Shown one piece after another: positions 26,134-50,374 of a stretch of DNA of 64,000 bases; positions within the stretch are counted from its first letter, which is position 1; every line of letters starts with the position of its first letter. The notes under the pieces were generated by a model. That model ran no database searches and had not been told where the DNA came from. It saw nothing but the letters and a program-made list of their open reading frames with translations. This DNA is from Clostridia bacterium (GTDB lineage Bacteria; Bacillota; Clostridia; Acetivibrionales; STF1-152). The stretch spans positions 1-64,000 of the forward strand of contig JANQLN010000048.1 of NCBI GenBank assembly GCA_028280575.1. Reading direction: 5' to 3'. Made by a program: the position numbers and the translations under genes.

Positions 26134-29100
26134 TTATTTTCCCATAACCTGCATCTGTACCGTTATGATTTTGGCTGCTTCAGCACGGGTGGCGTTATCA
26201 GCCGGAGCAAACCGGTTACCGCCTTTCCCGGATATAATGCCCGCGCGCTGCATGATTGATACTGAAGCTTTTGCATACCCTGAGATTTCTGTATCATCTG
26301 CAAAGGTCAAAGCCTCTGCGAGTGCCGGCAGGGTATACCCTTCTACCTTATCCGCATATCGTACCGCAATGACAGCCATTTCCTGACGCGTAATTGGGTC
26401 ATTGGGATTGAATTTCCCGTCATATCCGTTGATGATGCCTTTTTCTGCTGCCCATGCTACGGCACCGAAGTACCAGCCGGTATTTTCCACATCATCAAAT
26501 GGTGCCTTTGTATATGCATTAAGATTCGCACCGCTCATGCGGGCAAAAATAGCCGCAAACTCGGCACGGGTGATGTTGTCGTTTGGTGCAAATGTGGTTT
26601 CTGTTTTACCGTTTACCATACCACGGTTTGCAAGGTAGTATATATATTCTTCCGCCCATCCCGATACATCGCTGAATTTGATGAACTCATAGCCTACGGC
26701 AAATTTGGAGAAATGATCTGTTGTAAACACAATCGCTCCAAGCCCTGCGTCGTATTTCGCATCAGCCATCTTAACAATCTCACTGCTGTCGCTGATATAG
26801 TAAGCAGTCACATTTTCGGCTTTCTCTCCTTCTTTAAGCGCATATGGAAGTGCAAGGGTAACTGTTCCGCCGTTAAAGGCTGTTATATTTTTGCCGCTTG
26901 CCTCAATGCTGAAATCATAAACCGGCCTTCCGCCTATAAGTTTTTGTGCTGCTTGCGGCAATTCGGACTGTTCTACCTGGCCTATGGAAATGCTGACTTC
27001 ACTTTCTTCCGCCTCTTCTGCAATAGCGGCCATCGCCTCCGGGGTAAAAGTCATTGTTGCCAGTTCCGACGACACTTTCACGGAGGTGTCACCTGCACCG
27101 GCAAGGGCCTTAACCGCTTCCCGGGATAGTTCAAGCTCAAGGGCCCTGGTATCGTCCGGCAGCTTGAGTGAAATTGTTGCCACCTCCGCTTTACCTTCTG
27201 ATGCCTTCCGTGTTTCCTCAATCAGCCTGGTGACAGCTTCACCGGCTAATTTTGCTTTTGCCCTGCCGCCCGAGTCAACCTGGGCCTCTACCTCCAGCCT
27301 GCCTTCTTTTAATTCAGGTTCTTCCGAAGCCGGCGGAGCTCCGACCCATTTATCAGATCCCTGTTCTTTAGTGTAATTATCGGTATAGTGCCACTCTATG
27401 TCATCACCGTCTTCTAGCCTGTATTCCCTCAAGCCCAGGCTGGGATGCTTTCCGTTGACTTTGTACATCCAGCCCGAAAAGGGCCCGTTGTCAAATTCAT
27501 ACAGCCAATGTCCACCAAACCCGGACGGTGCCTTGATACCTCCAATATAATTGTACTGTGTCTCATCATACTGAATATTGTGTCGGTCCAGGGCCATGAC
27601 AAAGGCATCATAGACATATGAACCTTCAGGCAGAGTCAGTCTGGTCCTGGGAATCCAAGTCTGGAAAGCCTCATGGGCATCTTCTGTGTAATGTTTGCTG
27701 TCGCCTATAAGCTTAAAGGTAACGGTAATGGTTTTTTCATTGGCATCATCTGCCGGTTTTAACCCGTTTATAGCTCCAATCAGGCTTTGGAGCGCATTGT
27801 ATATTTCCGCCTGTCCTGCCGTCTCACTTTCACTTGCTTCAATTGCCTTGTTTAAAGCGGTTAAAAGGGCACTCCAGGTAGCTGATGTATAATCTGATTC
27901 TTTCAGAGCGGACGCCTGGGCAATCTTTGCATTGAGCTCGGTTTTATCCACCGGCTGAGGCTGAGGTATACTGGTATCCTTGAAGATATAGATATTGTAA
28001 GGTTTACCGGCATCAAGCATTTTTGTATAGGCTACCAGTGCCCTGAAGCCCTGCTCAGAAGCCATTCCATTATATTTTGTATCGGTAAAGCCGAATTTGT
28101 TGTCAGTAGTTTTATAACTCAGCAAAGCATCAACAGCACTTATGTCCTCCTTGATAAAACGGGGGTCTGTATCAGCGTCAATACCCAGTGCGGACAGGGC
28201 CACAATTACCATGGATGCGGAATTTGAATTTTCCTCACCCCAGCTTTCAAAGCCCCCGCTTACAGTTTGCATGCCCGATAGGCAGTTAACAGCATCTTCC
28301 AGGGCAGCTTCAACATTTTCGTCATCCCTGTAATTTGCCAGGGCAGAAATTGCCATACCTGTAATATCCGGGTCGGCCTTATTCCCGTTAAGAGCCCAGC
28401 CGCCGTCACCTAACTGGGCGGTAAGAAGATACTGCATAATCTTTTCCCTTGTCCAATTTGCAGTAGGGGGCAGGCCGTAATCTCCCGAATCATATGCAAT
28501 AAGTGCAAAAATGTAGTTGTTTATGGTCCCCAGGGACGGTGTCTGGGCACCGGCATTGTAATTTGCAATTTTTTCAATAAAGTCGGCAGTGCCGCCTTCT
28601 CCGTCATCCACGGCTGTAGCGTCAATCCCCATAGATGTCAGCGAAATGGCCACCCTTTCGTAATCGGTGGCGGGTGCGGACGTTTTATTATAGACACTCA
28701 AGGCATTTGCAACAAGCGTATCAATATCCATATAACCGCCCATGCCGTAGGCTGCCATGTCCATAACATCCCAATCCCCGCTGCTTCCCTTCAAGCTGTT
28801 GGAAATAGCTGTCAGGATGGTTTGGATAATCCTGGCTTTGCTTGCTCCTTCATCAAACACAAGGGCGTCCATGGCCGCAGTAAGTGCGGCAAGAGCTTCA
28901 TCCACTCCATCCTGGACCGCTTCATCGTCTGCAGCTGCGACCCTGGCAGCCTCCAGCGCCTCTGCAAATACCGACCAGCTCTCTGCCGTATAGTCTGCCT
29001 CTTCCAAGGCATCCCCCTGTTCTATTTTTTTATTTATATCACCCTTGTACACTGAACCGGCCTCACCTGCAACCGTCAAGGCCACATCTTCCATTTTTGT

Positions 29101-32100
29101 CACATAGTATTCCTTTTCCCTTGTCCACCAGGTGGGTCCGTATTTCACCCAGATATGTCCGCCCTTCAGCTTGTACTTTCCCGGTTTTGTATTTTCCGGA
29201 ACAGTAAATGTTATGGTTTTCAAGTTATCCAATTCATCTGTGTTTTTTACATTGGCTGACTTTACACGCTCAAACCCCGGTATGTCGGTACCAAAGACGG
29301 TATACGAGTCAAGCAGGTCCACAATGGTTCCCGACATGGTGGTATGGTTGTCTTTGAGCATTTCCGTATCAATGCCCGGTATGGATATGGTCACCTCATC
29401 TCCTGCTTTTACAGTACCTGTGCCCGCTGCTTCTGCAGACAATACATCCTCAGGTTCATAATGGGGATCCTCAACCACCGTCAAACAGATGTCGGGAAGC
29501 CTTGAAAATTTGTTTGATATCTGGTCCGCATCCAAATTAGGAGGGGCTGTTCCTGTTGGCGTTTCAGCGTAAAGCCCGCTTCCGAACCAGCTCAATTTTA
29601 TATATCCCCCGGTTAAATCAACTTCTCCCGAGCCCGTAAGCTCGAAGGCCAAAGCGCCTGAAGCATACTGGCTTGAGCCGGAGCCTACCATATGATAGCG
29701 GGGCATATTTGAATAATATTCCATACGCATGGATGCCGGATTGTAAATTCTAGATACCTTGGGTACCGGCACCATTATACCGGTATATGCTATGCTGACG
29801 GTATCCCCCTGGTAAAATGCACTGCCTTCCCTGGACACATTTGTAATTTTCATGGAAACCGCTTTGGCCCTTATGCCGTATGCAATAGAGGTTGTGTTTC
29901 CATCTTTGTATGCGGTCACTATAACAGGATTGTACTTATCCCGCAGGGGCACGGTAAATACGCCGTTTGCTTGCGGATAATAGGTAACACCGTTTACCTG
30001 GGCGGACAGGGCGGCTTCGCTTTCACTCTCCGCTGTAAAGGTAAACATGTATTCTTTTTCTTCTTCCGTAAAATACATGATGTCATATTTTGTAACCCGG
30101 CAGTCAATATCTGTACTGAGAGCAGGTCCCTGGCTGCCGGGGGTCTTGACGCATACGGGTATGACGGGAATCTGCCCCGAATATCCTTCATAGCTTATTG
30201 AAAAATAGGCAAGCCCTTCCTTGAGCCCCTTTACGTAATATTTTGTCAAGTCCTGTGTCCCGTTATTTTCAACCCTTTTTTCAATTTCAAAAACACCTTC
30301 TTCCCCGGACAGCTCAAATATCAAGTCGTCCCGGTTGTATGCCTTATCCTCGTCTCCTACCCTTGGGGTATCAAATATCACCATCTCTTCTTTTTCTCCC
30401 GCGTCGATGTTGACAGCCATGGTACTGAGCAGGAAGTCCTTGCTGTAGTCCTTTGCAACCCCTTCTTGCGGATTCATCGAATCCAGCAGCTCCGCAAGAT
30501 CCTCTTCCATTTTTTCCAGGCCGTATATCCATCCGCGAAAAAAGTACTTTTGGTCCGGTGTCAGAGCCTCGTATGCCGCACGGATCTGCTCTATGGCCTC
30601 CCGGTCTTCCAGGGTAAGCTCTTTAACCTTGAGTTTTTTGTTCAGTGCAATAAGCATATCAATAACTTCATCTGCTTTTAGCCTGTCGGCTTCATAGATG
30701 GCTTCTATGCGCGCTTCAGCAGCTTCCAGGGTTTCAAGGTTGTTAACTTCTTCCTTTTCGTCCTCCGTAAGGTAGCCGTAGAACCTGCGCACCTTGTCTA
30801 TCTGTTCTTTATCCCCGTAGATGATGTCTCCGATTTCAGGAATTTCCGCAATCATCTGTCCTACCTGTACGGGAGTACGCTTGATTTCGATTGTGTAGGT
30901 ATAGGTTTTTCCCGAACTGTTATTGGGACTGTTATAGCGGTTGTCGATAATTGCATTGATTACCTGACCGTCTTTAACGGAAAATGCAGCAGGCTTATTC
31001 AGCACGCTGCTTCCTCCGGACTCAAGCTCAATTACCAGATAGCGGTCTATATCCCTGCCTTCATATCCTATGTAACGTTCCGCAGAAACAGTTATTTCGT
31101 CTGTCCCTTCAGGCACCATATAATACCCGGTAGAAGACGTAACATCTTCGGTTTTATCACCTGTGGTAAATTTTACTGCAAGAAAAGAACCGGACCTGGG
31201 GTGGCAGTGAATGTCAATTCCTCCGTCCACAGAGTATTCAAGGGTGAGCCTATCTCCGTCCTCAACCAGGTAATCCTGCGAGGTGTCCCATATGCACCAG
31301 TTGTTGATGCTCATAACCCACTTGCTGCGTTCCTCCGAATCACCTTCAGAAAGGTATCCCACAGTTCTTACATGGTCTTCAGAGGTTACAGGACCAATTC
31401 CCTCAATATATGCAGGAGTACCAATAACATAGTATTTTTGGGAAGCCAGCGCCCCGGTGATAGCCTCACGCACCGTCATGCCGGGAGTGATGTCTACTTC
31501 CACATCTTCCAGCAGTACGCCAAAGGGCTCCTGGTAATCGCCCAGGCCGGTGAGCGGCTCAATTGTTACATTAGAGCCCCACGGGCTTAAAGTAGTCCAT
31601 TTTCTTTCCACCACATCCTGTACTGTTACCGTAACCTTTCCCAGATCTGTGGGAGGTTGGGGTGTTTTGTTTAAATCAGCTAAAACAGCATTTACCTCTG
31701 CCTGGCCGGCCTGCATTTTCAGCAGTATGCCCAGGGCTTTATCGTAATAGCCTTTATATTCGGTGTCAGCCAGCATCTGCAGTTTATCTTCACTGGAATT
31801 TATCTCCGCTACTTTTTTAATCAGGTCATCCTTGTCAGCCGCTTCTATAAGGCTGTTCTCACCATAGCCCAAATCTCCTCCATAGCCATAGACACTAAAC
31901 TGCAGCCTGAAAACATCACCGTCCTGGGGGATGCAGTCGGACATTCCGTAGCCGGGCAATTGATTATTGGCTGTGTACATCCATCCGGCCATCCGGTAGT
32001 AGTCGAATTCTCCCAGGAAGCCGGCTTCCGCCCTTGCTCCCACCGTGCCTTCGCTTGCGGTAATGGCATCTATGATATACTGGGGTATATCCGCTTCGGC

Positions 32101-34497
32101 AGGCCCGTTATCCTTGACGGCGGAAAGGTAAAAGGAATTGTCGATTGTTCCGGTATTTTTATAATTCCCAATGCCTAATATCCTGGTGATTACGGAAGCC
32201 AAGTTTTCTCCGTCATTGATGGATATTTGCACAGGCTCCAGTACAAACCCCTGACCCAATGTGAACTTTTCTACGGAAACACTTATACAAGGCGCAGGTA
32301 TTGCAGATTGTTCCAGTTCATTGATTTTTTGCTCCGCCGCCGCCAGTTTATTCCGGCTGTCTTCTGATACAAGGGCTTTTTCCTGGTCATTCAACAATTC
32401 ATAATCAGCCCTTGCTTTCAAAACAGCTTCTTTTTCGGACAAAGTCAATGCATCAACATCCGGCAGCGCTTCAATCTTTGCATTAACCGCCTCTACTCTC
32501 ATGGCACTTCTTTCAAGCGGGGCAATTACCGCAAAGACATCAGCCAGCTTATTAAAATTGGTTACGTTTACATAAGTTTTTGCCAGTTCATTGAGGGCGT
32601 TGTAGGCCGTATTGGCCTCTAATGCAGCCTGCTTGTCGCCGATACCTGCATCCTGGGGAGACGGCAGCAATTCTATCAAGCTGTCCACTTCCTGTGCCGC
32701 CGCTCTTGCTTCCAAATCGTATATTTTCTCTTCCGCCGCTGTTAATTTACCATAATTGGTTATAGATTCTTTTTGCTCATTGCTTAAAGCATCATAGGCA
32801 CTTCTTGCTGCCTGCACATCTGCTTTATCTGAAAGCAAAATTGTTTCTGTTAGAGGAAGCGTCCCTATTAACTCTTCAACTGCATCGATCTCAAGCTGAG
32901 GGATTTTTTCTTCCAAAGCTGTTAAACCTTCAATATTAGTTACAAGCTGCTGATACTTCTCCGGTAAAATATTGTATGTGTGGAGGATATGCCTGATCTC
33001 TCCCCTGTATCCCAGTGTAACGGGCGAAGGCAAAGCTGCAATACGGTTTTTTAATTCCACAGCAGTAGCAGTTGCAAGATTTGTTGTAAATTCTTGAGCC
33101 TCTGCCAGTATACCATAAACCTCATCCGTAACGCTTGACTGCTGATTTGCAGTCAGCTTATTATAGGCATCTGACAACGACTCCACCTGTGGAGCGTCAC
33201 CCAAAGTGAGAACATTAATTTCTGGCAGATGTTCAATTAAGCCTTTAACAAAACCACCCAGGGCAGGCGATTCAGCAAAGGGTTTTACAGTCCAGCCATA
33301 CCATTTTTCATCGTCTGGATTTCCGTCGTCTATGTTTTTATAGCTGCCTACATGCTCATTCGGCACATATACGGTCCTTTCCTCCGGGACCCCGCCAAAA
33401 GTAATATCCGGATTATCTACTGCTACGTCCTCTTTCCCAAGGTATAGCTCACTTAAAGAGCCACAATTGGTAAATGAATATTCAGGTATTATGCTTATTT
33501 CAGGCAGCCATACTCTGGCAAGGGAAACATTTTCATAAAAGAAACCCAGATTTTCAGAGGCTGAATACGCCTGTGGAATATAGACACTTTCCAGACCGGC
33601 ACACATTTGAAACAGTGCATAGCTTAATTCCTGCAAGTTTGGAACTACCAGTGTCTTCAGGGCGTTAAGAGATGAAAAGGCACCTGATTCCGCGTTTCTG
33701 AGATTTGTTAATTTTAAGGTATGCATAAAGATGCAAGAATAAAAGGCATTTTCCCCCACTTCTTTAACCGAGGGCAAATCAACTTTTTTAAGACCCCGGT
33801 GCATATAAAAAACGTCATCCGGCAGCACCCCTCCGTTAATATCTACGGTGTGAGACGCTGTAAGGGTTTCAAGGTTGGGCAGGCTGCTTTTTATATAAGC
33901 CAAATCCTCACCGGTTACTGTTCCTCCGGTGAATTCCAGCGCCGTTACCGCATCCGGGCCGCTTACCTCCGCCGACATTACAATATCCTGTAAGGAATCA
34001 CCTCCCGCGTTCCCTTCACCGTTAATAACGGCGGTCAGCAGCGCCGCCTCCGGATTCCATACCACAATAGCTTTTTCCCTTGTGTTGTTTGATTCATTGG
34101 CTTCACTTACAGCTTCACTGCTGTCGGCCACTACCTTCAAGGTATAATTCCCCTGTGCAAAAGGAGTCCAGTCAAAGTAAACAGTTTCAGTATCTCCGCT
34201 ATATACCGAAGCTGCTACCGTTTGTTCCTGCAGCAAATCATCATTTGCATACAGGGCAACCTTGAACGGTTCTGCCGCTTCCGCGTCCCCCGCGTTGTAA
34301 ACCGCGGCGGCCACACTGACCTGCTGTCCTGCTATTACACTTTTGCGCGTGGTTATTCCCGCAACCGTCAGGTCAGGCTTCCCTTCTGAAGCATACACCT
34401 GCGTTGTGGACACCGGCGGGACAAAAAGCCCCGTTATAAAGGTGAACAGAAGCAGGATGCTAAGAAGAATTGTTTTTGACTTCTTCATGCCATTCAT
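26134..34497 (-). CDS. Giant SLH-domain surface protein with CARDB-like, LRR-like, DUF4430 (transcobalamin beta-like) and alpha/alpha-barrel domains
   Basis: 2787 aa; signal peptide; GWMYTANNQLPGYGMSDCIPQDGDVFRLQFS and SGWMYKVNGKHPSLGLREYRLEDGDDIEWHYT (DUF4430-like); barrel repeats (QLGDGGWALNGNKADPDITGMAISAL, SGGFESWGEENSNSASMVIVALSALG); three C-terminal SLH motifs. Confidence 0.88.
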   Translation of the reverse strand: MNGMKKSKTILLSILLLFTFITGLFVPPVSTTQVYASEGKPDLTVAGITTRKSVIAGQQVSVAAAVYNAGDAEAAEPFKVALYANDDLLQEQTVAASVYSGDTETVYFDWTPFAQGNYTLKVVADSSEAVSEANESNNTREKAIVVWNPEAALLTAVINGEGNAGGDSLQDIVMSAEVSGPDAVTALEFTGGTVTGEDLAYIKSSLPNLETLTASHTVDINGGVLPDDVFYMHRGLKKVDLPSVKEVGENAFYSCIFMHTLKLTNLRNAESGAFSSLNALKTLVVPNLQELSYALFQMCAGLESVYIPQAYSASENLGFFYENVSLARVWLPEISIIPEYSFTNCGSLSELYLGKEDVAVDNPDITFGGVPEERTVYVPNEHVGSYKNIDDGNPDDEKWYGWTVKPFAESPALGGFVKGLIEHLPEINVLTLGDAPQVESLSDAYNKLTANQQSSVTDEVYGILAEAQEFTTNLATATAVELKNRIAALPSPVTLGYRGEIRHILHTYNILPEKYQQLVTNIEGLTALEEKIPQLEIDAVEELIGTLPLTETILLSDKADVQAARSAYDALSNEQKESITNYGKLTAAEEKIYDLEARAAAQEVDSLIELLPSPQDAGIGDKQAALEANTAYNALNELAKTYVNVTNFNKLADVFAVIAPLERSAMRVEAVNAKIEALPDVDALTLSEKEAVLKARADYELLNDQEKALVSEDSRNKLAAAEQKINELEQSAIPAPCISVSVEKFTLGQGFVLEPVQISINDGENLASVITRILGIGNYKNTGTIDNSFYLSAVKDNGPAEADIPQYIIDAITASEGTVGARAEAGFLGEFDYYRMAGWMYTANNQLPGYGMSDCIPQDGDVFRLQFSVYGYGGDLGYGENSLIEAADKDDLIKKVAEINSSEDKLQMLADTEYKGYYDKALGILLKMQAGQAEVNAVLADLNKTPQPPTDLGKVTVTVQDVVERKWTTLSPWGSNVTIEPLTGLGDYQEPFGVLLEDVEVDITPGMTVREAITGALASQKYYVIGTPAYIEGIGPVTSEDHVRTVGYLSEGDSEERSKWVMSINNWCIWDTSQDYLVEDGDRLTLEYSVDGGIDIHCHPRSGSFLAVKFTTGDKTEDVTSSTGYYMVPEGTDEITVSAERYIGYEGRDIDRYLVIELESGGSSVLNKPAAFSVKDGQVINAIIDNRYNSPNNSSGKTYTYTIEIKRTPVQVGQMIAEIPEIGDIIYGDKEQIDKVRRFYGYLTEDEKEEVNNLETLEAAEARIEAIYEADRLKADEVIDMLIALNKKLKVKELTLEDREAIEQIRAAYEALTPDQKYFFRGWIYGLEKMEEDLAELLDSMNPQEGVAKDYSKDFLLSTMAVNIDAGEKEEMVIFDTPRVGDEDKAYNRDDLIFELSGEEGVFEIEKRVENNGTQDLTKYYVKGLKEGLAYFSISYEGYSGQIPVIPVCVKTPGSQGPALSTDIDCRVTKYDIMYFTEEEKEYMFTFTAESESEAALSAQVNGVTYYPQANGVFTVPLRDKYNPVIVTAYKDGNTTSIAYGIRAKAVSMKITNVSREGSAFYQGDTVSIAYTGIMVPVPKVSRIYNPASMRMEYYSNMPRYHMVGSGSSQYASGALAFELTGSGEVDLTGGYIKLSWFGSGLYAETPTGTAPPNLDADQISNKFSRLPDICLTVVEDPHYEPEDVLSAEAAGTGTVKAGDEVTISIPGIDTEMLKDNHTTMSGTIVDLLDSYTVFGTDIPGFERVKSANVKNTDELDNLKTITFTVPENTKPGKYKLKGGHIWVKYGPTWWTREKEYYVTKMEDVALTVAGEAGSVYKGDINKKIEQGDALEEADYTAESWSVFAEALEAARVAAADDEAVQDGVDEALAALTAAMDALVFDEGASKARIIQTILTAISNSLKGSSGDWDVMDMAAYGMGGYMDIDTLVANALSVYNKTSAPATDYERVAISLTSMGIDATAVDDGEGGTADFIEKIANYNAGAQTPSLGTINNYIFALIAYDSGDYGLPPTANWTREKIMQYLLTAQLGDGGWALNGNKADPDITGMAISALANYRDDENVEAALEDAVNCLSGMQTVSGGFESWGEENSNSASMVIVALSALGIDADTDPRFIKEDISAVDALLSYKTTDNKFGFTDTKYNGMASEQGFRALVAYTKMLDAGKPYNIYIFKDTSIPQPQPVDKTELNAKIAQASALKESDYTSATWSALLTALNKAIEASESETAGQAEIYNALQSLIGAINGLKPADDANEKTITVTFKLIGDSKHYTEDAHEAFQTWIPRTRLTLPEGSYVYDAFVMALDRHNIQYDETQYNYIGGIKAPSGFGGHWLYEFDNGPFSGWMYKVNGKHPSLGLREYRLEDGDDIEWHYTDNYTKEQGSDKWVGAPPASEEPELKEGRLEVEAQVDSGGRAKAKLAGEAVTRLIEETRKASEGKAEVATISLKLPDDTRALELELSREAVKALAGAGDTSVKVSSELATMTFTPEAMAAIAEEAEESEVSISIGQVEQSELPQAAQKLIGGRPVYDFSIEASGKNITAFNGGTVTLALPYALKEGEKAENVTAYYISDSSEIVKMADAKYDAGLGAIVFTTDHFSKFAVGYEFIKFSDVSGWAEEYIYYLANRGMVNGKTETTFAPNDNITRAEFAAIFARMSGANLNAYTKAPFDDVENTGWYFGAVAWAAEKGIINGYDGKFNPNDPITRQEMAVIAVRYADKVEGYTLPALAEALTFADDTEISGYAKASVSIMQRAGIISGKGGNRFAPADNATRAEAAKIITVQMQVMGK

Positions 34498-34568
34498 ACG
34501 CTCTCCCCCTCAAATTATAGTTTTTCCAAAACACGACCGCTTATTTTTCGACCATTTACCTTATAATA

Positions 34569-34610
34569 AAAAAGCACCACCCGTTACAGGTAGTGCCTCC
34601 GTTTTTCGGT
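34569..34610 (-). terminator. Leader terminator/conserved element copy A
   Basis: Minus: CCGAAAAACGGAGGCACTACCTGTAACGGGTGGTGCTTTTTT; matches copy B at 49831. Confidence 0.65.
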
Positions 34611-40797: not shown

Positions 40798-43700
40798 TTA
40801 TTCGAACATCATCTGCACCAGTACGGTCAGCATCTTGGAAGCCTCCGCACGTGTCGCTTTGTCTAAAGGTGCAAACATATCGTTTTCCCTCCCGCTTATT
40901 ATACCTGCCCTCTGCATAGCACTTACCGCATCCCTTGCATAGCCTCTCACCTGCGTCTGATCTGCAAAGGTTTTAGCCTGAATGTCGGCAGGCAGGCTAA
41001 ATCTCTTATACGCTGCATAACGGAAAATCATCACAGCCATATCCTGTCGGGTAATCCTGTCCGCAGGAGAGAAAGTGTTTTCCGAAATCCCCGTGGTGAT
41101 ACCGGCATTGACAGCCCATTCTATATTCTTAGAATGCCAGACGGTCTTGTCAATATCAATAAACTTATTACCCGCAGCCGGCATCTCTTCTCCACTGATA
41201 CGTGCAAGAAGTGCTACAAACTCCGCTCTTGTAATGCTGTCCTCCGGTGCAAAAGCAGTTTCGGACCTTCCTTTTATGAAGCCCCTTTCTGCCAGATAAT
41301 AAATATATTCCTTTGCCCAGTGGGTATCTGAGACATCTTTGAATACCACATTGTACTTCTCGTAGACAACAGCATATACGGAGAAGTGGTCTGTTTCAAA
41401 GATAATGCTGCCGGTTTCCTCATCGTATACGGTACCTTCAATTTTTACTGCCTTTCCGTTTTCACCGATGTAGTAAACAGTTAGCTTTTCGTTATCCTCT
41501 CCGGGCTGCAGCGTATATGGAAGAGATACGGTGACCTTAGCTCCCAGTGAACTGACGGACTTGTCTCCCACAACTACAGAGAAATCGTAAACAGGTCGGT
41601 CTCCGACCAGTGCCCTGTTCTCGTCCGAAAGTGAAGCTGTTTCCACCTTTTCGATACCAATGCTGACATCCGAACCGCTTTTTTTTGCAATTTCAGCCAG
41701 CACTTCCCTGGGCATGGTGATGTCTGCAATACCTGTCGATATCCTCATCCCTATGCCCGCGTCGTTTGCCATGGAGGAGACAGAAGACATAGGAAGTGTT
41801 ATATTCACCTTTCCCACATCACCGTCTATTTCAGGTGTGATGGTAAGGTTTGGAATATTTTCACTCTTTGCCCGTTCCACTACTTCCTCCAGGGATTCCG
41901 CGGAAACCTTCACTTTTGCCGTACCATTATCTATCTCGGCTTTGGGCTTAAGCGTAACCTCATTTGTCGGTCCTTCAGGTTCCTTGTCACTGCCTCTGAT
42001 AGCGGACGGCGCACTGCCCGTATCAAAAGCGCCCAGCTCGTTGAGCCTTTTTATGGCAGCGTTATAGTTGACCACATTACCTACGGTGATGTAGAGCTTC
42101 TGCTCTTGTGTCAGAGCCTTGTATTCCGCATCGGCATTCATGACGGCGGATTTGTGGGATAAGGTGATCCGAGAAGCCTTTGGAATTGAAGCCAACAGGT
42201 CTTTTACGTTCTGAATTTCATCATAGAAAACAAGTTTTTCCTCCGCCGCCTTGAGCGTTGCCAGGTTTGTGACCTTTGATTTTTCAGAGGAGTTCAGGAT
42301 ATTATAAATTGCTCTCGCGTATTCTATTGCCCGTCTGTTGCTTACGAAATTGTAGAAGGTTATTTTGCCTGCAGCAGGAAGCTCTGTGATTAAACCGGTT
42401 ACATACGACGCGCCGCTGTCCGGGCTGATGACATGCAGCTCGTACCAGGTGCCGGTGTAGTCGCGGTCCTCAGTTTCCTGATTGTTCATGGACGGCCAGG
42501 CGTACTCGCCGACTCCTATGTATATGGTGTCGCCCAGACGCACCGGAATTGTTTCCGTGCGTTTATAAAAGCTATTGCCTCCCGCGCCGCTCCTGTTCTT
42601 GTCATTCAAATATGTCTTGACAAGATAATTTTTGTTCGAGGCAGTTGGTATCACTTTCACATTGGCTCTGCTGCCCGATATGACCAGCGCATACTCATAG
42701 GTCACACCTGTGGCCGCTTCCTTCACAAAGGCCGGCGTAAGGGTTGCGGCACTGACCGTCAGGCCTTTCAATGTCGTATCCGAGTTGTGCCAGGTGCCGC
42801 CCAGATCGACCCCCAGATTCTGTGTAAACACTACACGGATTTTATCTCCGTGTTCAAGCTTGCCGTTTGCAACCGAAAACTCCTGGAAGCCATAGTTTGT
42901 GAACCAGTCGTTTAAGGTTCCCATCCAGCCGGAACCTGGATCGCCGGAGAATTCTCCCATCTCTTTATCACCCTTAATTATCTTGGCAAGATATTCTATG
43001 TCATAAAAGTCGGCCTCTTCGCTGCCTCCGATACCCGCCCAGCTGTAACCTGAGTCCGCAAGGGCCCGAAGCACAGCGGTCATCATTGTGTCATTTTGAC
43101 CCAGAGGATATCCTGGCTCACTTATGATTTTCCCGGTAAAATCACCTCCGGGGAAGGTGTAGTTTTCAACATATACATCTACCGTACCAACCTGCTCTCC
43201 AGCGTCAAAATCGCTGTTGCCAATCTCCCCGGTATCACCAGTCTCCTTTTTTTCCACCGCTGCCATGGCAGCAAGCGCATTACTCTTAGCCGTTTCAATC
43301 GCGGGATTATTCCCTGCCGCTGCTATGGCTGCGAGACCGTTATTGTATGACGCAACCATCAACGCCCAGTTTTGATCGGTGTAGTCACTCCTGGAGTAGG
43401 CGTTGAAGGCCTCTGTCAGCTCGTTGGCAGCCTGCTCGGCAGGAGAGCCGGCCACGGGGCCCCATGTGACGGTTACGGTGACGTCGTTATACGGCATGGC
43501 GAAACGGTATATAGCGCCAGGAACACGGAGCCTTCTTCCGCCGATGCTGTCATCGAATTCAAAATCCGTTATCACATCGGCATAGAATGTATCATATTCA
43601 TCCGGGCCTTCAAAGAGAACGCTTTTGATCTCATACGGTTCACCATTGATATTGACGGTGACATTATGAAGCAGCTCATAATATGTACCTGTATAATCAC

Positions 43701-46700
43701 CGTGCGTCATCTCCGACCCGTCGATGGACCAGCCTTCGCCCGAAACGACATTCGGACCGCCGTGTATGCCGTCCGGGTCGATGAGCTCGTAGGTGGCATA
43801 TCCCGGGTCGAACATCAGCGTCACCCAGCGGTCGGGATCAGTGGTGTCTGCTTTCGTCACCAGGCTGCTTCCGACATCGCCGTAAGTTAAACCGTCATTG
43901 ACATCTCCGGTTTGCCGTATACAGAAGTCCGGCCGGCGAAGCCAGGTCGAGAATGTGTTAAATGTATTTTCACTATCAGCAGCATAGCCGTCGATGCCGT
44001 GGTTCTGCAGATAGGCCGTCATGTCGGCCAATGCCGCTTCCGCCGCATCGGTGTAGGCCTCTATAACCAGGTTCAGGTCATACGGGTCAATATAGGGAAG
44101 GCCATTGTCATGTACCGCAACGACCGCGTCGTACCTGGCCTGCTCGCCCATGGTCAGCTCACCTTTCTGATAGTCGGTCAGCGCCGCATACTGCCCGATC
44201 AGGCCGTCGAAATGTGTGCCGTCTGGAATTGTATAACCGGTAATCAGGTGTTCGACGCTGGAGGCCAGCTTAGACAAGTCATCAGGCAGGCGGCCCAGGA
44301 CATTCCGAAAGTCGGATAATTTCTTCGTATTGTCGGCCGTCTGCGCGTCATGTATGGCTTTAATGGCTTTAACAGCGCTCTGCTGGGCCTCTGCGGCTTC
44401 ACCGATTGTAGCCGCGTTCGTTATGCCGTCAACACCTGTCTGATATACCTGTTCGATCGCCGTCCAGTCAGCAGCAGTAAAATACTCCTCACCATAAGCA
44501 TTGTAAACTGCATCCAGTTCCGTCTTGATTGCGGCCTTGACCGCAGCCGGGTCTGAAGACGGCGTCACATGGACAAGGATTGGAGAGCCGTTCGTCAGCG
44601 ACCCGTTTGCGCTCTTGTCATAGACGGTTAGCAGGTAGTACCCCTCGGCGTACAACGTGTGTATAAAGCTGCCGCCCGGTCGGGTAACAACACCGGTATC
44701 AATTATGGCAGCCGAAGCAAGCGCCTCCGCTTCCGTCGCAAAGCATGTGCTGACATAAACTGCCGCGCCCTCAATCGGAAAATACCTGCCGGTATAGCTG
44801 GAAGGAAGCGCGGTCTGCGCAGTCGCCATAAGAGTGAACTCCTGTCCCACCTCGGTGGTCAGGGACACAATCTCTGCATTGCTTTGCTCGAACCGCTGGT
44901 ATTTGATACTTCCTCCTACCTCGCGCAGCAGATAAGGCATGAGCGAGCCGCTGAGGTTATAGTAGGTGGGCACTGCAGTCAGGACAAGCGTGACCCTGTC
45001 ACCGTCCTGAAGCCGGATGCCGGTATAGCCTAATGAGAGCGGCGGATTGTTCATAGACAATGTCGTCGGCTCATGAACGAATATGCCGTTGATATAGACT
45101 CCTACATAGCACTCAACACGTCCTTCCCTATACCATAGGGGAGAATAATTGTCCCCCAGCATCTGTGTCAAAGCATCTCCCAGCGTCTCACCGCCTGACA
45201 GCGTCAACTCTCCGTAGTTGCCTGCCGCATCGTGAACCATACCACCTTTATAAACAGCGTAATTATCCACAATAGACAAATTAACACTTATATCACCATT
45301 AGGTACGAGCCCCTTATAGCAGGCATCCCAAAGTGACTTGCAGGCATTTACATAGGAAATGGCTTCATTCACCCCAATACCGTCTGTGGGTGCATCATGA
45401 CTGTCATAAAACTCCAGAGCTTCCGTCCGTGCTGCTATTAAGGCATTGTGGCCTTCAGCGTAGTCCGACTCAGTCATGTAGCCCGGGTTGAATAACTTGT
45501 TTGCCAGCACAGGTATGATGTTATACGCCATTTGTGCGTTCGCCAGCTGGGTTTTATCGGCAAGAAGATCAAGGGCGTCAAGGGCGTCGTTGAGGGCATC
45601 GGTCTGGGCCTTTAACTCGTCCTGATAATCTGCTGTATTTAATACGGTTGGGCTGCCTTCATTGTACAGTGAGTCAAGCATGTCATTAGCTGCAGTAAGC
45701 TCATCCTGCATTGCGGTCCATGCGACAGCTGAATACTCACCTATAACCTTAGTGCCTGCAAGCTGTACTGCCTCGTACAACAGCGTTGCATTGACATTTG
45801 CGGTAGGAAGCAGCTTCGATATCGCATTCTGGAGTTGGTCTTCCGCAGCATCCACAGCACTCTGTGAGGCAGCAGTATTATCATTTATAGTGTTAGCTTC
45901 AATCAAAACGGTCTGCATATCATTCCAGAATCCGTTCTCACTTGTTTCAGTACCATTCCAGCGATCTTCAGCCTGATAGTAGCTTTGGGCATTTTCACCA
46001 GTAACACTGTTAATCACAGCCTGTAAAGATGTTTTCTCAGCTGAGCCTTGTTCACCCCATTCAACAATCAGGTAGCAAACAGGTTCGGTTGTCTTTTTAA
46101 ATCTATACAGAGAATAAAACAATAAATAATTGGCATCATCATCTGTTTTATAACTGCTCAACTCCGGCGATGCATTAAATGAACTCATAGCCGCACTGAA
46201 AATTGCATTGGATGCTGTCGGTAATATTTCTACTGCTAACGCATCTTTCTGGTCAGCAAATATTCTGTTGATCGGTGTACTCCCATAGTTTGATGAGTTT
46301 ATTATCAGGCTTTCATAGCTACTTGCAACCGATACCTTGTACAGGGGAAGACCATTGTACTCTCCTATAGCTGTACCGTATGTATTCTCCATATCCGTTA
46401 TGGTGAATACACTATCTTCACCTGATGATTCTGTTAACTGAATAATAAAGCAATTCGTTGTTACCAGTGCTGCATCACTAGCCCTGATTCCGGCATATGC
46501 CGGTGTGTCATCCCAAACTATACCTTCAATATCAGGAAGGTCACCTGTACCTAAGGAAAATTCGCTTAACGGCAAATCCCATGATGAGCCGTCGGCATTA
46601 AGATAATTCTCTCCGGTAGGACCAGTTTCCAGATTTATTACTAGATCTGCGACAACAAGTATGTTGGCTTGCAGCAAATCCATAAACTGGTCGCCCATTA

Positions 46701-47553
46701 CACCGCTTATATTTATGGACGTTGCTTCCGCCGAAGTTTCTACCAGGAAGTAATCTAAACCCTGGTAAATACCCAGATCGGTTATGGGCAATACATCTCC
46801 TGACTCATTTTTAATTGACCATTTTGTCTCGGCTGCTGTAACCTCCTCCACCGTCACGACGGCGGTGCTGCTCGTGGCCGCTGCACTGCTTTCGACCAGG
46901 GTGTTGGTGGCTGTGACATAGTAATATGAGGTTCCCGCCGTTTCTGTGGGCGGCGTGTAGCTGTTTGCCTCCGTTCCGGCAATCGGCGTAAAATTAGTAT
47001 TATCCTCGCTGCTGTACCACTGATAAGTAATCGTGCCACCGTCATATACGGAAGCGATTACTGTCAGCGCATCGGCCGTGTCGCCCACGGAGAAGGTCAC
47101 TTCTGCCGTGCTCAGATCGGTTTTAAACACCGGAGTCTCGGCTGCCGTAACCTCCTCCACCGTCACAACGGCGGTGCTGCTTGTGGCCGCTGCACTGCTT
47201 TCAGCCAGGATGTTGGTGGCTGTGACATAGTAATATGAGGTTCCCGCCGTCTCTGTGGGCGACGTGTAGCTGTTTGCCTCCGCTCCGGCGATCGGTGTAA
47301 AATTAGTATTATCCTCGCTGCTGTACCACTGATAAGTAATCGTGCCACCGTCATATACGGAAGCGGTTACCGTCAGCGCGTCGGCCGTGTCGCCCACGGA
47401 GAAAGTCACTTCTGCCGTGCTCAGATCGGTTTCAAACACCGGAGTCTCGGCTGCCAGGGCTGAATTAGTTAAACCAAACATTACAGAGACAATCATAACT
47501 AATATCAAAAAAAGTGACGAGAATCTCTTCTTCCTCTTAATATTTTGTTTCAT
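40798..47553 (-). CDS. Giant SLH-domain surface protein with Ig-like tandem repeats, FIVAR-like and DUF4430-like domains
   Basis: about 2250 aa from MKQNIKRKKR (ORF track start 47631); two 103-aa N-terminal repeats; GSGWMGTLNDWFTNYGFQEFSVANGKLEHGDKIRVVFTQNLGVDLGG; three C-terminal SLH motifs. Confidence 0.85.
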   Translation of the reverse strand: MKQNIKRKKRFSSLFLILVMIVSVMFGLTNSALAAETPVFETDLSTAEVTFSVGDTADALTVTASVYDGGTITYQWYSSEDNTNFTPIAGAEANSYTSPTETAGTSYYYVTATNILAESSAAATSSTAVVTVEEVTAAETPVFKTDLSTAEVTFSVGDTADALTVIASVYDGGTITYQWYSSEDNTNFTPIAGTEANSYTPPTETAGTSYYYVTATNTLVESSAAATSSTAVVTVEEVTAAETKWSIKNESGDVLPITDLGIYQGLDYFLVETSAEATSINISGVMGDQFMDLLQANILVVADLVINLETGPTGENYLNADGSSWDLPLSEFSLGTGDLPDIEGIVWDDTPAYAGIRASDAALVTTNCFIIQLTESSGEDSVFTITDMENTYGTAIGEYNGLPLYKVSVASSYESLIINSSNYGSTPINRIFADQKDALAVEILPTASNAIFSAAMSSFNASPELSSYKTDDDANYLLFYSLYRFKKTTEPVCYLIVEWGEQGSAEKTSLQAVINSVTGENAQSYYQAEDRWNGTETSENGFWNDMQTVLIEANTINDNTAASQSAVDAAEDQLQNAISKLLPTANVNATLLYEAVQLAGTKVIGEYSAVAWTAMQDELTAANDMLDSLYNEGSPTVLNTADYQDELKAQTDALNDALDALDLLADKTQLANAQMAYNIIPVLANKLFNPGYMTESDYAEGHNALIAARTEALEFYDSHDAPTDGIGVNEAISYVNACKSLWDACYKGLVPNGDISVNLSIVDNYAVYKGGMVHDAAGNYGELTLSGGETLGDALTQMLGDNYSPLWYREGRVECYVGVYINGIFVHEPTTLSMNNPPLSLGYTGIRLQDGDRVTLVLTAVPTYYNLSGSLMPYLLREVGGSIKYQRFEQSNAEIVSLTTEVGQEFTLMATAQTALPSSYTGRYFPIEGAAVYVSTCFATEAEALASAAIIDTGVVTRPGGSFIHTLYAEGYYLLTVYDKSANGSLTNGSPILVHVTPSSDPAAVKAAIKTELDAVYNAYGEEYFTAADWTAIEQVYQTGVDGITNAATIGEAAEAQQSAVKAIKAIHDAQTADNTKKLSDFRNVLGRLPDDLSKLASSVEHLITGYTIPDGTHFDGLIGQYAALTDYQKGELTMGEQARYDAVVAVHDNGLPYIDPYDLNLVIEAYTDAAEAALADMTAYLQNHGIDGYAADSENTFNTFSTWLRRPDFCIRQTGDVNDGLTYGDVGSSLVTKADTTDPDRWVTLMFDPGYATYELIDPDGIHGGPNVVSGEGWSIDGSEMTHGDYTGTYYELLHNVTVNINGEPYEIKSVLFEGPDEYDTFYADVITDFEFDDSIGGRRLRVPGAIYRFAMPYNDVTVTVTWGPVAGSPAEQAANELTEAFNAYSRSDYTDQNWALMVASYNNGLAAIAAAGNNPAIETAKSNALAAMAAVEKKETGDTGEIGNSDFDAGEQVGTVDVYVENYTFPGGDFTGKIISEPGYPLGQNDTMMTAVLRALADSGYSWAGIGGSEEADFYDIEYLAKIIKGDKEMGEFSGDPGSGWMGTLNDWFTNYGFQEFSVANGKLEHGDKIRVVFTQNLGVDLGGTWHNSDTTLKGLTVSAATLTPAFVKEAATGVTYEYALVISGSRANVKVIPTASNKNYLVKTYLNDKNRSGAGGNSFYKRTETIPVRLGDTIYIGVGEYAWPSMNNQETEDRDYTGTWYELHVISPDSGASYVTGLITELPAAGKITFYNFVSNRRAIEYARAIYNILNSSEKSKVTNLATLKAAEEKLVFYDEIQNVKDLLASIPKASRITLSHKSAVMNADAEYKALTQEQKLYITVGNVVNYNAAIKRLNELGAFDTGSAPSAIRGSDKEPEGPTNEVTLKPKAEIDNGTAKVKVSAESLEEVVERAKSENIPNLTITPEIDGDVGKVNITLPMSSVSSMANDAGIGMRISTGIADITMPREVLAEIAKKSGSDVSIGIEKVETASLSDENRALVGDRPVYDFSVVVGDKSVSSLGAKVTVSLPYTLQPGEDNEKLTVYYIGENGKAVKIEGTVYDEETGSIIFETDHFSVYAVVYEKYNVVFKDVSDTHWAKEYIYYLAERGFIKGRSETAFAPEDSITRAEFVALLARISGEEMPAAGNKFIDIDKTVWHSKNIEWAVNAGITTGISENTFSPADRITRQDMAVMIFRYAAYKRFSLPADIQAKTFADQTQVRGYARDAVSAMQRAGIISGRENDMFAPLDKATRAEASKMLTVLVQMMFE
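46836..47453 (-). repeat. Two tandem ~309-bp coding repeats (Ig-like domains)
   Basis: AETPVF[EK]TDLSTAEVTFSVGDTADALTV...VVTVEEVTA repeated twice, near-identical at nucleotide level. Confidence 0.9.
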
Positions 47554-47617
47554 ATTCTGTTTATGTGTATAAGGGGCATCAAAAAGACACCCCCAATATA
47601 CTACTCCTTTCTTATGT

Positions 47618-49387
47618 TCAGTTCCCAACAAACTTGATCAGGGTAATATACGGTGAATTAGTGCTGTCCTGCGTAATCACCTGGACATACGTTGTCTCCC
47701 CGGATGTGACAGTGAAAGGCACAGCCTGACCGGATGTTTTGCTCACACCGTTAATAAAGAAATAGTCTGTATTGTTTTCTGCCGCATTGATATAATAAGT
47801 TCCTGCGTTTAAATTAATGGTCGTTGTACCCATATTTGAATGGTTAACTGTAACGTTCATATAGTACTGGCTTTGTCCATATTTAATTGTCGGGATATAT
47901 TGTGCCGCACCGCTGCCCGTGTCGTCGGCGTCATAAATACCTTTAATCTCAGTACTCGTCTCTCCAAACACTGCACTTACGTTCATTGTACCTGTATATA
48001 CACGTACAAAGCGGATGTTGGAAAGGGATACGGGTTCGCCGTCGGAATTGACAGCCCAGGAGATATCGATGGGGTCACCGCCGGTGGACGAATCTGTCGC
48101 CGCATAAGGGTTGTAGCTTGTCGTACCATAGTTTGAGCCGTTGGCATGGACGTCAGCGTAGCCAAAGGTATAAAGCATTGTGGTTGGCGCTGTCTGGTTC
48201 AGATTGACACCCTTATAGGCCAGCGTCGCCGTTGCGCTGCCAACGATCGCATTGGGAGGAGTATCACCGTCCTGAATTGTCTGACTTTCCTTCAATGTTG
48301 CGAAGGACAGCTGGTCGATGTTGGCCATAAGACCCGAGACTCCAGCACCCGTGTAAGCCGTGGCTGTGTTGTCCGTTGCGTCGAAGTAATTGCGCGCCAG
48401 CGGGAACCAGCTGTGATCGTGGTATGCGTTCGTCGTCATTTCAGAATAGCTGCTCCACGTCTGGGTCGATCCGCTGACGGACACGTTGTCGGTATCCGCG
48501 TAGGGAACATTGACACGCGTGGATGTGCCGCTTGTGTTATCCGACGGGGTGGGGTTGCCGTAGACAAACTCGCAGTCCCAGTCCGTCCCGCTCATGTAGT
48601 GGCGCGAGCCGGCGATGTCATACCACGTGTCAGGTACGCCGTTATTGTCCAAATCCTGAGCTACCTGGATGCAGCCCGGTTCGGACCAGTTGGTGAAAGC
48701 GTTGCCGTAGACGATGAAGTCCACGCCATATTTGTTGGTGTTGGTGTTGTCGATGCCGCTTTCGCCGAAGTCAAACACGATGGAGCCGCCGTAAGCGCCC
48801 AGGGAAACGCCAGTAGCAAAGTTGGCATCGACCAGCGTCTTAAGAGCCGTACCGCCTGACTGGTAAATGTCGCCCCAGCCACCCGAGTCGATGCCCTCGT
48901 TGACAAACTGGCCGGGAGCCGGCAGAAACGAATAAATTCCGGTACCGGAAGAGCCAGCAGTTCCGCCGGTGGGTTCTTCACAGTTAAATGTGAGATCGTA
49001 TTTGTTGTCTTTCGTCTGGATCTGCACGGTCGAAGTAGTGCCTTCAGGCAACGTCACCAGGCAATAGTCGTTGCCGCCCGAAGAACTGTATACCGTGAAT
49101 ATCCCGCCGTTCGTAACCGTCGGCGTCCCTTCATATTTGCCAGTGGTGAGAATCATGGAAAAGCTGAATGGGTAGTCGCCGTCGGTTGAGTCGATGTCAA
49201 AATCATATGCGGAGTTCTGGTTGATCGCCAGGGCTTCTGTCCCGCTAGATACTGAAACCGTCAGCCCGTCCACCGTAACAGAATCCCAAGTATCGTCCGC
49301 TAATGCCATAATGGGTACGAGCGTCAAAATCATGGCCAGCATCAACACGAATGCCAGCAGTTTTGTTTTTTTGATCCTTGTAGTCAT
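47618..49387 (-). CDS. Secreted cell-surface protein, function unknown
   Basis: signal peptide MTTRIKKTKLLAFVLMLAMILTLVPIMALA; SD AGGAGG before ATG 49387; SLGAYGGSIVFDFGESG...VDFIVYGNAF. Confidence 0.8.
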   Translation of the reverse strand: MTTRIKKTKLLAFVLMLAMILTLVPIMALADDTWDSVTVDGLTVSVSSGTEALAINQNSAYDFDIDSTDGDYPFSFSMILTTGKYEGTPTVTNGGIFTVYSSSGGNDYCLVTLPEGTTSTVQIQTKDNKYDLTFNCEEPTGGTAGSSGTGIYSFLPAPGQFVNEGIDSGGWGDIYQSGGTALKTLVDANFATGVSLGAYGGSIVFDFGESGIDNTNTNKYGVDFIVYGNAFTNWSEPGCIQVAQDLDNNGVPDTWYDIAGSRHYMSGTDWDCEFVYGNPTPSDNTSGTSTRVNVPYADTDNVSVSGSTQTWSSYSEMTTNAYHDHSWFPLARNYFDATDNTATAYTGAGVSGLMANIDQLSFATLKESQTIQDGDTPPNAIVGSATATLAYKGVNLNQTAPTTMLYTFGYADVHANGSNYGTTSYNPYAATDSSTGGDPIDISWAVNSDGEPVSLSNIRFVRVYTGTMNVSAVFGETSTEIKGIYDADDTGSGAAQYIPTIKYGQSQYYMNVTVNHSNMGTTTINLNAGTYYINAAENNTDYFFINGVSKTSGQAVPFTVTSGETTYVQVITQDSTNSPYITLIKFVGN

Positions 49388-49551
49388 AAATATGCCTCCT
49401 ATTTTTTGTTTTTTCCTGTTTTTTACTATTGACAATCTTCAAGTGCAATTCAAGGACTGTCTCAAGTCAGTACCTGTTTTAGCAAATTTACTTTTCTATA
49501 ATACCCTCAAAGCAACCACTCCCTTTCGTCATACATCTTATTTTTAAACCT

Positions 49552-49743
49552 TCAAAATTCAAACTTTCTGGTCTTTTTTTCCACCATTACAGGCTGTCTG
49601 TCCTTTATTACAATTCTGAACTCTCCGTCAGAAGCTGCCCTTATAAGATTTATCAGCTTTTTCTCTTTTCTACTGACGTAAAGCCGGGTATTTTTTTCAT
49701 TAACGTTATGCAAACCTTCTACACCCTCTCCTGTCATTTTCAA
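49552..49743 (-). CDS. Small DUF2292-like protein (second copy)
   Basis: KEKKLINLIRAASDGEFRIVIKDRQPVMVEKKTRKFEF, parallel to 49993..50163. Confidence 0.65.
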   Translation of the reverse strand: MKMTGEGVEGLHNVNEKNTRLYVSRKEKKLINLIRAASDGEFRIVIKDRQPVMVEKKTRKFEF

Positions 49744-49830: not shown

Positions 49831-49873
49831 AAAAAGCACTACCCACATTTAAGGGTAATGCTTCCGTCTTTCG
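49831..49873 (-). terminator. Leader terminator/conserved element copy B
   Basis: Minus: ATCGAAAGACGGAAGCATTACCCTTAAATGTGGGTAGTGCTTTTTT. Confidence 0.65.
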
Positions 49874-49992
49874 ATAAGCACTGTGCAGAAATTTATAATT
49901 TCCGCTTTCGCAAATAACTCTTATACCAATAGGTTAATAAAAACTTTGCGCAAAAACTCTTTTAACTTTTAAACAATCTTGCCATTGCACCG

Positions 49993-50163
49993 CTAAAGCT
50001 TGATTGATTTTGTGACCTCTTCTATCCTTACCGGCTGTTTATCCTTCACAACAATCTTAGCCTCACCATAGTCAATCTCACGAAGAATCCTTATGAGTTT
50101 TTTTTCCTTTTCACTCAACCTCTCCGGCAGACTATTTTTCTTTTCATATATAAAATCAGGCAC
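49993..50163 (-). CDS. Small DUF2292-like protein, GTG start, absent from the ORF track
   Basis: SD GGGAGGTG then GTG: MPDFIYEKKNSLPERLSEKEKKLIRILREIDYGEAKIVVKDKQPVRIEEVTKSIKL*. Confidence 0.8.
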   Translation of the reverse strand: MPDFIYEKKNSLPERLSEKEKKLIRILREIDYGEAKIVVKDKQPVRIEEVTKSIKL

Positions 50164-50198
50164 TTAAAAACACCTCCCTATCGCTCGTAGAGTATTTT

Positions 50199-50374
50199 GG
50201 TGTATAAAACAGGCAGGTCTTCTGGCTCAAGCATCATCATTCCTTCTGCCTTCCCGGTTTCCCAGTGGCATTTCTGAAAGAACTCCTCTTTTACAGCGGC
50301 GGGACCGCGCGGGATTTTCACCCGCTTTCCTTTTCACCAATCCCTAATTTACTTAAAAACTATAATTGGCACCT
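50199..50374 (-). ncRNA. Cobalamin (adenosylcobalamin-type) riboswitch
   Basis: Minus: GGTGCC...AGGGATTGGTGAAAAGGAAAGCGGGTGAAAATCCCGCGCGGTCCCGCCGCTGTAA...GCCACTGGGAAACCGGGAAGG...GAGCCAGAAGACCTGCCTG (B12 box). Confidence 0.96.

What the first reader, a model, noticed from the sequence alone, without database searches (positions are those of the whole stretch)
26134..50374. Candidate Gram-positive surface capture-and-relay system for vitamin B12 with intrinsic-factor/transcobalamin-like domains
Seen: a cobalamin riboswitch heads a minus-strand gene run with small DUF2292-like proteins, a secreted surface protein, two giant SLH proteins, an SLH alpha/alpha-barrel protein, a membrane-anchored DUF4430 protein and ECF transporter subunits. 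Established: animal intrinsic factor, transcobalamin and haptocorrin combine an alpha6/alpha6 barrel with a C-terminal beta domain related to DUF4430, and ECF-type B12 transporters (e.g. CbrT) exist. Inference: wall-anchored alpha/beta proteins bind cobalamin or corrinoids and pass them through the membrane-tethered beta protein to the ECF importer. This would be a Gram-positive counterpart of the BtuB/BtuG outer-membrane strategy.
Basis: partly seen in the sequence, partly recalled or inferred. Interest (0 to 1): 0.88.

Follow-up and report, generated by a model that had tools for sequence, protein, structure and literature searches.

The report
Bacterial wall-anchored vitamin B12 capture-and-import operon
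This bacterium carries a B12-switched gene cluster whose wall-anchored proteins have the same two folds as the human B12 carriers (transcobalamin, intrinsic factor) plus a Bacteroides-type B12-binding protein, all next to a B12-type membrane importer; it is very probably a B12 scavenging machine, outlined in 2007 from gene context but, as far as the papers searched show, never tested.

Summary
Confirmed and strengthened. A strong cobalamin riboswitch (112 bits) precedes a minus-strand run containing toroid, DUF4430 and SLH surface proteins, a membrane-tethered DUF4430 protein, an ECF T subunit and an ABC-ABC-S fusion. New here: the unnamed 605-aa secreted protein is a BtuH homologue (E=2e-19 to the B12-bound Bacteroides structure 7BIZ); the S component matches CbrT, the biochemically proven ECF B12 transporter (6FNP, E=2.5e-19); the toroid-DUF4430 models retrieve transcobalamin, intrinsic factor and haptocorrin structures ahead of every other fold. 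Of 20 DUF4430 loci from 20 Bacillota genomes, 15 carry a cobalamin riboswitch; of 80 loci centred on the S component, 58 have DUF4430, 55 the toroid, 41 a riboswitch. BtuH is fused to DUF4430 and SLH in six of these. A membrane-anchored DUF4430 gene sits directly before cbiQ in 52 of 68. Best reading: wall-anchored cobamide capture feeding a dedicated ECF importer, in a monoderm that also makes cobamides. Binding and hand-over are inferred, not shown; in the models the two domains are not closed as in transcobalamin. The giant protein at 26134..34497 may be a separate transcription unit. Prior art: Burroughs 2007 predicted the core idea; Putnam 2022 noted Firmicutes BtuH near an ECF gene.

The parts
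50195..50391 (-). Cobalamin riboswitch aptamer; expression platform probably sequesters the Shine-Dalgarno of the next ORF
   Evidence: RF00174, 112.3 bits; anti-SD pairing in the fold
49993..50163 (-). Small DUF2292 protein, first ORF after the riboswitch
   Evidence: PF10055 E=5.5e-5; relatives near riboswitches in L063, L126, L080, L088
49832..49873 (-). Conserved hairpin/terminator-like element CGAAAGACGGAAGCA...TGCTTTT
   Evidence: exactly two copies in the genome, both in this locus; relatives in other B12 loci
49552..49743 (-). Second small protein, distant paralogue of the DUF2292 protein
   Evidence: phmmer link to DUF2292 proteins of related loci
47618..49435 (-). Secreted BtuH homologue (ATG start probably 49387); BtuH2 contacts Gln333, Asn399, Phe401, His476 conserved as Q176, N245, F247, H339
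   Evidence: 7BIZ E=2.4e-19, 8BLW_B E=1.6e-14; profile E=8e-40 and 4.7e-49; positions
40798..47631 (-). Giant SLH-anchored protein (start probably 47553): Ig-like repeats, divergent DUF4430 (aa 1502-1620), SLH x3
   Evidence: SLH E=3.5e-31; DUF4430 E=3.8e-25 with the profile made here
39097..40770 (-). Alpha/alpha toroid (aa 34-345) plus SLH x3
   Evidence: SLH E=2.3e-29; toroid profile
38221..39081 (-). Membrane-tethered DUF4430 (transcobalamin beta-domain-like) protein; its stop codon overlaps the CbiQ start
   Evidence: PF14478 E=7.2e-19; N-terminal TM segment; same arrangement in 52/68 loci
37331..38287 (-). ECF T component, CbiQ family (start probably 38221)
   Evidence: PF02361 E=4.3e-10
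34785..37358 (-). Fused ECF ATPase-ATPase-S component; S part (34788-35501) is CbrT-like
   Evidence: TIGR04520 E=5.5e-100; profile vs 6FNP CbrT E=2.5e-19, next hit 0.09
34570..34608 (-). Second copy of the hairpin/terminator-like element, between the S gene and the giant gene
26134..34497 (-). Giant SLH protein: CARDB, LRR_5, DUF4430 x2, toroid (27949-28866), FIVAR, DUF4430 (27334-27657), SLH; possibly a separate transcription unit
   Evidence: AF2 model of toroid-FIVAR-DUF4430 best matches TC/IF/HC

Best explanation
It is a cobamide (vitamin B12) scavenging system of a monoderm bacterium. When intracellular cobalamin is low the riboswitch permits expression. A secreted BtuH protein and SLH-anchored proteins with transcobalamin-like toroid and beta-grasp (DUF4430) domains catch cobamides in the cell wall. 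The membrane-tethered DUF4430 protein, made in step with the T subunit, collects the ligand next to the membrane, probably by closing on a toroid partner as the two halves of transcobalamin do, and presents it to the CbrT-like S component of a dedicated ECF transporter, which imports it with ATP. Shown: sequence and fold homology, anchoring signals, gene order, riboswitch, co-occurrence across genomes. Inferred: binding by these particular proteins (best supported for BtuH), order of the relay, the split-transcobalamin closure. Confidence is about 0.9 for cobamide uptake and about 0.5 for the relay through the tethered DUF4430 protein; the figure given is for the whole scheme without insisting on the relay order.
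For: Riboswitch at the head. BtuH homology to the B12-bound structure with 4 of 8 contact positions kept, the phosphate-binding Asn invariant in 9 homologues. S component closest to CbrT (PMC5997447). Toroid-DUF4430 models: the 15 best PDB matches are all transcobalamin, intrinsic factor or haptocorrin; best match better than the best cyclase by a factor of several thousand in E-value. Survey of 80 S-component loci: 58 DUF4430, 55 toroid, 42 SLH, riboswitch in 40 by the model made here, one more by Rfam; 37 of 43 same-strand riboswitches directly precede toroid, DUF4430, BtuH or CbiQ genes. DUF4430-centred sample: riboswitch in 15 of 20 loci, about 50 per Mb against 1.4 per Mb in the window's own genome. 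BtuH fused with DUF4430 and SLH in six named loci, and with DUF4430 in four further proteins. In L118 a predicted lipoprotein fuses toroid and DUF4430 directly before cbiQ. No Omp85, so monoderm; pyruvyl-transferase (CsaB family) present for SLH anchoring.
Against: No binding or uptake data. The DUF4430 profile reaches transcobalamin only marginally by sequence (E=0.035), and the toroid sequence profile finds terpene cyclases, not transcobalamin. The AF2 models do not reproduce the closed sandwich (global TM 0.23-0.49, rmsd 12-23 A). Three BtuH2 contacts (Tyr510, Trp511, Trp577) are not conserved. The organism has most de novo cobamide genes and other riboswitch-linked BtuFCD-type genes, so need for the system is not obvious. 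Terminator-like hairpins may split the locus.
Confidence: 0.8

Rival explanations
1. Only the ECF importer and BtuH handle B12; the giant SLH proteins are structural or adhesive wall proteins with inherited folds that no longer bind corrinoids.
For: They carry Ig-like, LRR, CARDB and FIVAR modules typical of adhesins; the 2787-aa protein lies behind a terminator-like hairpin; 20 of 80 S-component loci show no toroid or DUF4430, some of them short contigs.
Against: Toroid and DUF4430 co-occur with the riboswitch in most loci and are often the first gene after it; BtuH is fused to them; the fold match is specific to B12 carriers.
Confidence: 0.12
2. The system imports cobalt or another tetrapyrrole (for example heme) rather than cobamides.
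For: CbiQ-family T subunit is best known from cobalt uptake; other ECF systems import heme (PMC7299338, abstract).
Against: No CbiM or CbiN gene in the run; S component matches CbrT; cobalamin riboswitch; BtuH.
Confidence: 0.05
3. In this cobamide producer the wall proteins mainly retain or hoard cobamides (own or foreign) at the surface, denying them to competitors, with import secondary.
For: Cobamide biosynthesis genes for most steps are present; several large candidate binding proteins per transporter.
Against: The importer genes are part of the same run and are conserved with it; repression by cobalamin fits uptake.
Confidence: 0.1
4. The toroid proteins are terpene-cyclase-like enzymes.
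For: The sequence profile finds squalene-hopene cyclase and drimenyl diphosphate synthase.
Against: Secreted and SLH-anchored; the cyclase DxDD motif reads DxDI or DxDM in most members (last Asp missing); fold search ranks transcobalamins first.
Confidence: 0.02

Closest known systems
Bacterial transcobalamin-like SLBB surface proteins with CbiO/CbiQ operons (Burroughs et al. 2007, PMC1796856)
   Same: Secreted toroid plus transcobalamin-like beta-grasp proteins, often two SLBB paralogues in one operon with CbiO-like ATPase and CbiQ; B12 scavenging predicted.
   Different: That text contains no mention of riboswitches or SLH, and predates the CbrT and BtuH work; the membrane-tethered DUF4430 coupled to cbiQ is not described in the passages read; it reported hosts usually lacking B12 synthesis, whereas this host has the genes.
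BtuH B12-binding surface lipoproteins of Bacteroides (7BIZ; Putnam et al. 2022, PMC8941943)
   Same: Homologous C-terminal B12-binding domain, riboswitch-linked locus, cell-surface capture.
   Different: No outer membrane or BtuB here; secreted or fused to DUF4430-SLH instead of a lipoprotein with Ig domains; Putnam et al. list only three Firmicutes homologues, one near an ECF gene.
ECF-CbrT vitamin B12 transporter (6FNP; PMC5997447)
   Same: Homologous S component and ECF architecture.
   Different: Dedicated T subunit and ATPases, with ATPases and S fused, rather than a shared (group II) ECF module; accompanied by extracytoplasmic proteins that ECF transporters are not known to use (own knowledge).
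Animal transcobalamin, intrinsic factor, haptocorrin (2BB5, 2PMV, 4KKI)
   Same: Alpha/alpha toroid followed by a beta-grasp domain of the same fold, in the same order.
   Different: Wall- or membrane-anchored, multi-copy beta domains, low sequence identity (10-16%), domains often on separate polypeptides.

Membership tests
Cobalamin riboswitch (RF00174) | Match above the curated threshold over the full aptamer | tested here: met
   112.3 bits against 31.5, positions 1-189 of 189
BtuH B12-binding proteins | Homology over the C-terminal B12-binding domain | tested here: met
   phmmer E=2.4e-19 and profile E=8e-40 to 7BIZ
BtuH B12-binding proteins | B12-contact residues (Gln333, Asn399, Phe401, His476, Tyr510, Trp511, Trp577, Leu578) | tested here: inconclusive
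   First four conserved; Tyr510, Trp511, Trp577 not; Leu578 is Phe
BtuH B12-binding proteins | Binds B12 | not testable with these tools
   No assay possible
CbrT-type ECF S component | Closest solved S component is CbrT | tested here: met
   6FNP E=2.5e-19; next hit 0.09
CbrT-type ECF S component | Transports cobalamin or cobinamide | not testable with these tools
   No assay possible
Transcobalamin/IF/HC fold | Toroid followed by beta-grasp domain, each matching the carrier fold | tested here: met
   Top 15 PDB matches for both models; beta domain TM 0.70 to 5NO0
Transcobalamin/IF/HC fold | Closed two-domain sandwich around the ligand | tested here: not met
   Unliganded AF2 models have a different domain arrangement (global TM 0.23-0.49, large rmsd)
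Transcobalamin/IF/HC fold | Conserved corrin-contact residues | not tested
   Residue-level alignment to the carriers' binding site was not available
Burroughs 2007 SLBB scavenging operons | Toroid plus SLBB surface proteins encoded with CbiO/CbiQ | tested here: met
Burroughs 2007 SLBB scavenging operons | Host usually lacks key B12 synthesis enzymes (a tendency, not a strict criterion) | tested here: not met
   cbiC, D, E/T, F, G, A, K, J, H, L, cysG/hemD and cobS, U, T, A present

The most novel reading that the evidence does not exclude
A split transcobalamin: in Gram-positive bacteria the toroid sits in the wall and the beta domain is tethered to the membrane beside the ECF T subunit; they close on B12 together and hand it to the S component, which would make this the first ECF transporter with a dedicated extracytoplasmic binding pathway and the probable ancestral form of the animal B12 carriers.
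Probability: 0.4. Interest if true: 0.87.

Novelty: new variant of a known kind. Interest (0 to 1): 0.72.

Why it matters
How Gram-positive bacteria catch the large, scarce B12 molecule in their wall is largely unknown, while the Bacteroides route is now well described. The locus gives a defined, widespread, riboswitch-tagged set of genes (about a third of 149 sampled Bacillota genomes have DUF4430, and in a 20-locus sample 15 sit by a cobalamin riboswitch) that makes the question testable. It also bears on the origin of human intrinsic factor and transcobalamin, and on whether ECF importers can use external binding proteins.

Tried and rejected
Sequence-only link of the DUF4430 domain to transcobalamin: marginal, replaced by fold comparison. 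The single phmmer search with the tethered DUF4430 protein found nothing in PDB. Search for BtuH in the window's own order: absent in the other 57 genomes apart from one weak N-terminal match outside the BtuH domain, so the order was not informative for BtuH. Diderm host considered and rejected: no Omp85. B12 auxotrophy as the reason for the system: rejected, the biosynthesis genes are present. A second riboswitch before the 26134..34497 gene: none at E<=1. The conserved hairpin element as a B12-specific regulator: it also precedes what looks like a thiamine operon (L167), so not exclusive.
Full report
OBSERVATION. The window holds a single Rfam match, a complete cobalamin riboswitch at 50195-50391 on the minus strand, followed by a minus-strand run down to 26134. 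Pfam and NCBIfam give DUF2292, SLH triplets on three proteins, DUF4430 on the 286-aa protein and on the 2787-aa giant, CbiQ, and a fused ATPase-ATPase-S protein. A profile built here also finds a divergent DUF4430 in the 2277-aa giant, two further copies in the 2787-aa giant, and alpha/alpha toroids in the 557-aa and 2787-aa proteins. In the whole genome DUF4430 was found only in this locus. The locus is richer in G+C (42-52%) than its flanks (34-42%). The organism has no Omp85, so 'Gram-positive' in the sense of monoderm is supported; its name was not established.

The 605-aa secreted protein is a BtuH homologue: phmmer finds only two PDB chains, 7BIZ (BtuH2 of Bacteroides thetaiotaomicron with bound B12) at E=2.4e-19 and the H-domain of BtuG1 (8BLW_B); a profile of nine Firmicutes homologues gives E=8e-40 and 4.7e-49. 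With the numbering of PMC8941943, mapped onto the chain by an offset of 100 that fits all eight named residues, Gln333, Asn399, Phe401 and His476 are kept in the window protein (Q176, N245, F247, H339) and the Asn is invariant in all nine homologues; Tyr510, Trp511 and Trp577 are not kept.

TRANSPORTER. A profile of six S components finds CbrT of ECF-CbrT (6FNP) at E=2.5e-19 with nothing else below 0.09. CbrT was shown to import cobalamin and cobinamide (PMC5997447).

FOLD TEST. AlphaFold2 models were made of toroid-FIVAR-DUF4430 of the window giant (pLDDT 84) and of L118, a natural toroid-DUF4430 fusion with a lipoprotein-like signal directly before cbiQ (pLDDT 90; sequence). For both, the 15 best PDB matches are transcobalamin, intrinsic factor and haptocorrin (E 1.4e-8 to 5e-7, and 5.7e-10 to 1.4e-7), ahead of cyclases (2e-4 and 3.7e-6). 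The beta domain alone matches at TM 0.70. Global superposition is poor (TM 0.23-0.49), so fold and domain order agree but the closed arrangement is not reproduced. By sequence the toroid resembles terpene cyclases, but the DxDD motif mostly reads DxDI or DxDM.

CONSERVATION. In the window's order, five further genomes carry the same run with the riboswitch. In 80 named loci chosen only by the S component, DUF4430 occurs in 58, toroid in 55, SLH in 42, BtuH in 6; the riboswitch model built here finds riboswitches in 40 and Rfam one more. A membrane-anchored DUF4430 gene is directly upstream of cbiQ in 52 of 68 loci, median gap -2.5 nt. Of 43 same-strand riboswitches, 37 have a toroid, DUF4430, BtuH or CbiQ gene as first or second ORF. 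A DUF4430-centred sample of 20 genomes, not selected for B12, has riboswitches in 15 loci, about 50 per Mb against 1.4 per Mb in the window's own genome; the background rate comes from that single genome. BtuH is fused with DUF4430 and SLH in six named loci, and with DUF4430 in four more proteins, one of them also with the toroid. Such fusions tie two unrelated B12-carrier folds to one function.

MECHANISM. Shown: homologies, folds, anchors, order, riboswitch. Inferred: capture by BtuH, toroid and DUF4430 proteins in the wall; concentration at the membrane by the tethered DUF4430 protein; import through the CbrT-like S component with CbiQ and the fused ATPases. The stop codon of the tethered protein overlaps the probable CbiQ start, which argues that the two act together. 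The host also has most cobamide biosynthesis genes and other riboswitch-linked uptake genes, so this would be salvage rather than the sole source.

REGULATION CAVEAT. The riboswitch appears translational (anti-SD ACACC). Two strong terminator-like hairpins with a shared upstream motif lie after DUF2292 and before the 2787-aa gene. Whether one transcript covers the run is therefore open, and the giant at 26134..34497 may be expressed separately; in relatives L081 and L127 the giant has its own riboswitch, but none was found here.

PRIOR ART. Burroughs et al. 2007 predicted B12 scavenging by such proteins from gene context; Putnam et al. 2022 noted three Firmicutes BtuH homologues, one near an ECF gene. 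Searches of the open-access library found no experimental study of the Gram-positive system; subscription papers were mostly not searchable. Hence 'new variant of a known kind'.

Noticed in passing
window 49832-49873(-) and 34570-34608(-); also L063:9302, L074:3218, L080:3941 and 12995, L166:9845, L167:372: A conserved hairpin plus terminator motif (GCTGACCGAANNACGGAAGC...GCTTTTTT), two copies in the genome, both in this locus; in other genomes near B12 loci and once before what looks like a thiamine operon; no Rfam match in window, L063, L074 or L080. Possibly an undescribed attenuator.
   Followed up: partly
window 49993-50163, 49552-49743: Pair of small DUF2292-type proteins right after the cobalamin riboswitch; relatives in L063, L126, L080, L088 near cobalamin riboswitches. 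Role in B12 uptake unknown.
   Followed up: partly
L182:9341-10269: A membrane-anchored DUF4430 protein beside a CbrT-like S component with no own ECF module and no cobalamin riboswitch, inside what looks like a carboxylase/decarboxylase operon (biotin carrier, transcarboxylase); suggests DUF4430 may be a more general partner of S components.
   Followed up: no
G000 C7, C63, C45, C4, C101 (L035-L039): The other five cobalamin riboswitches of the genome precede cobamide biosynthesis genes, BtuFCD-type transporters and anaerobic ribonucleotide reductase NrdD.
   Followed up: partly
window 26000-50000: G+C 42-52% against 34-42% outside; BtuH domain absent from the other 57 genomes of the order, which suggests horizontal gain of at least that gene.
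   Followed up: no
L037:6832-9517: Nitrogenase-like proteins (by eye) follow a riboswitch-linked BtuCD-type transporter in the same genome.
   Followed up: no
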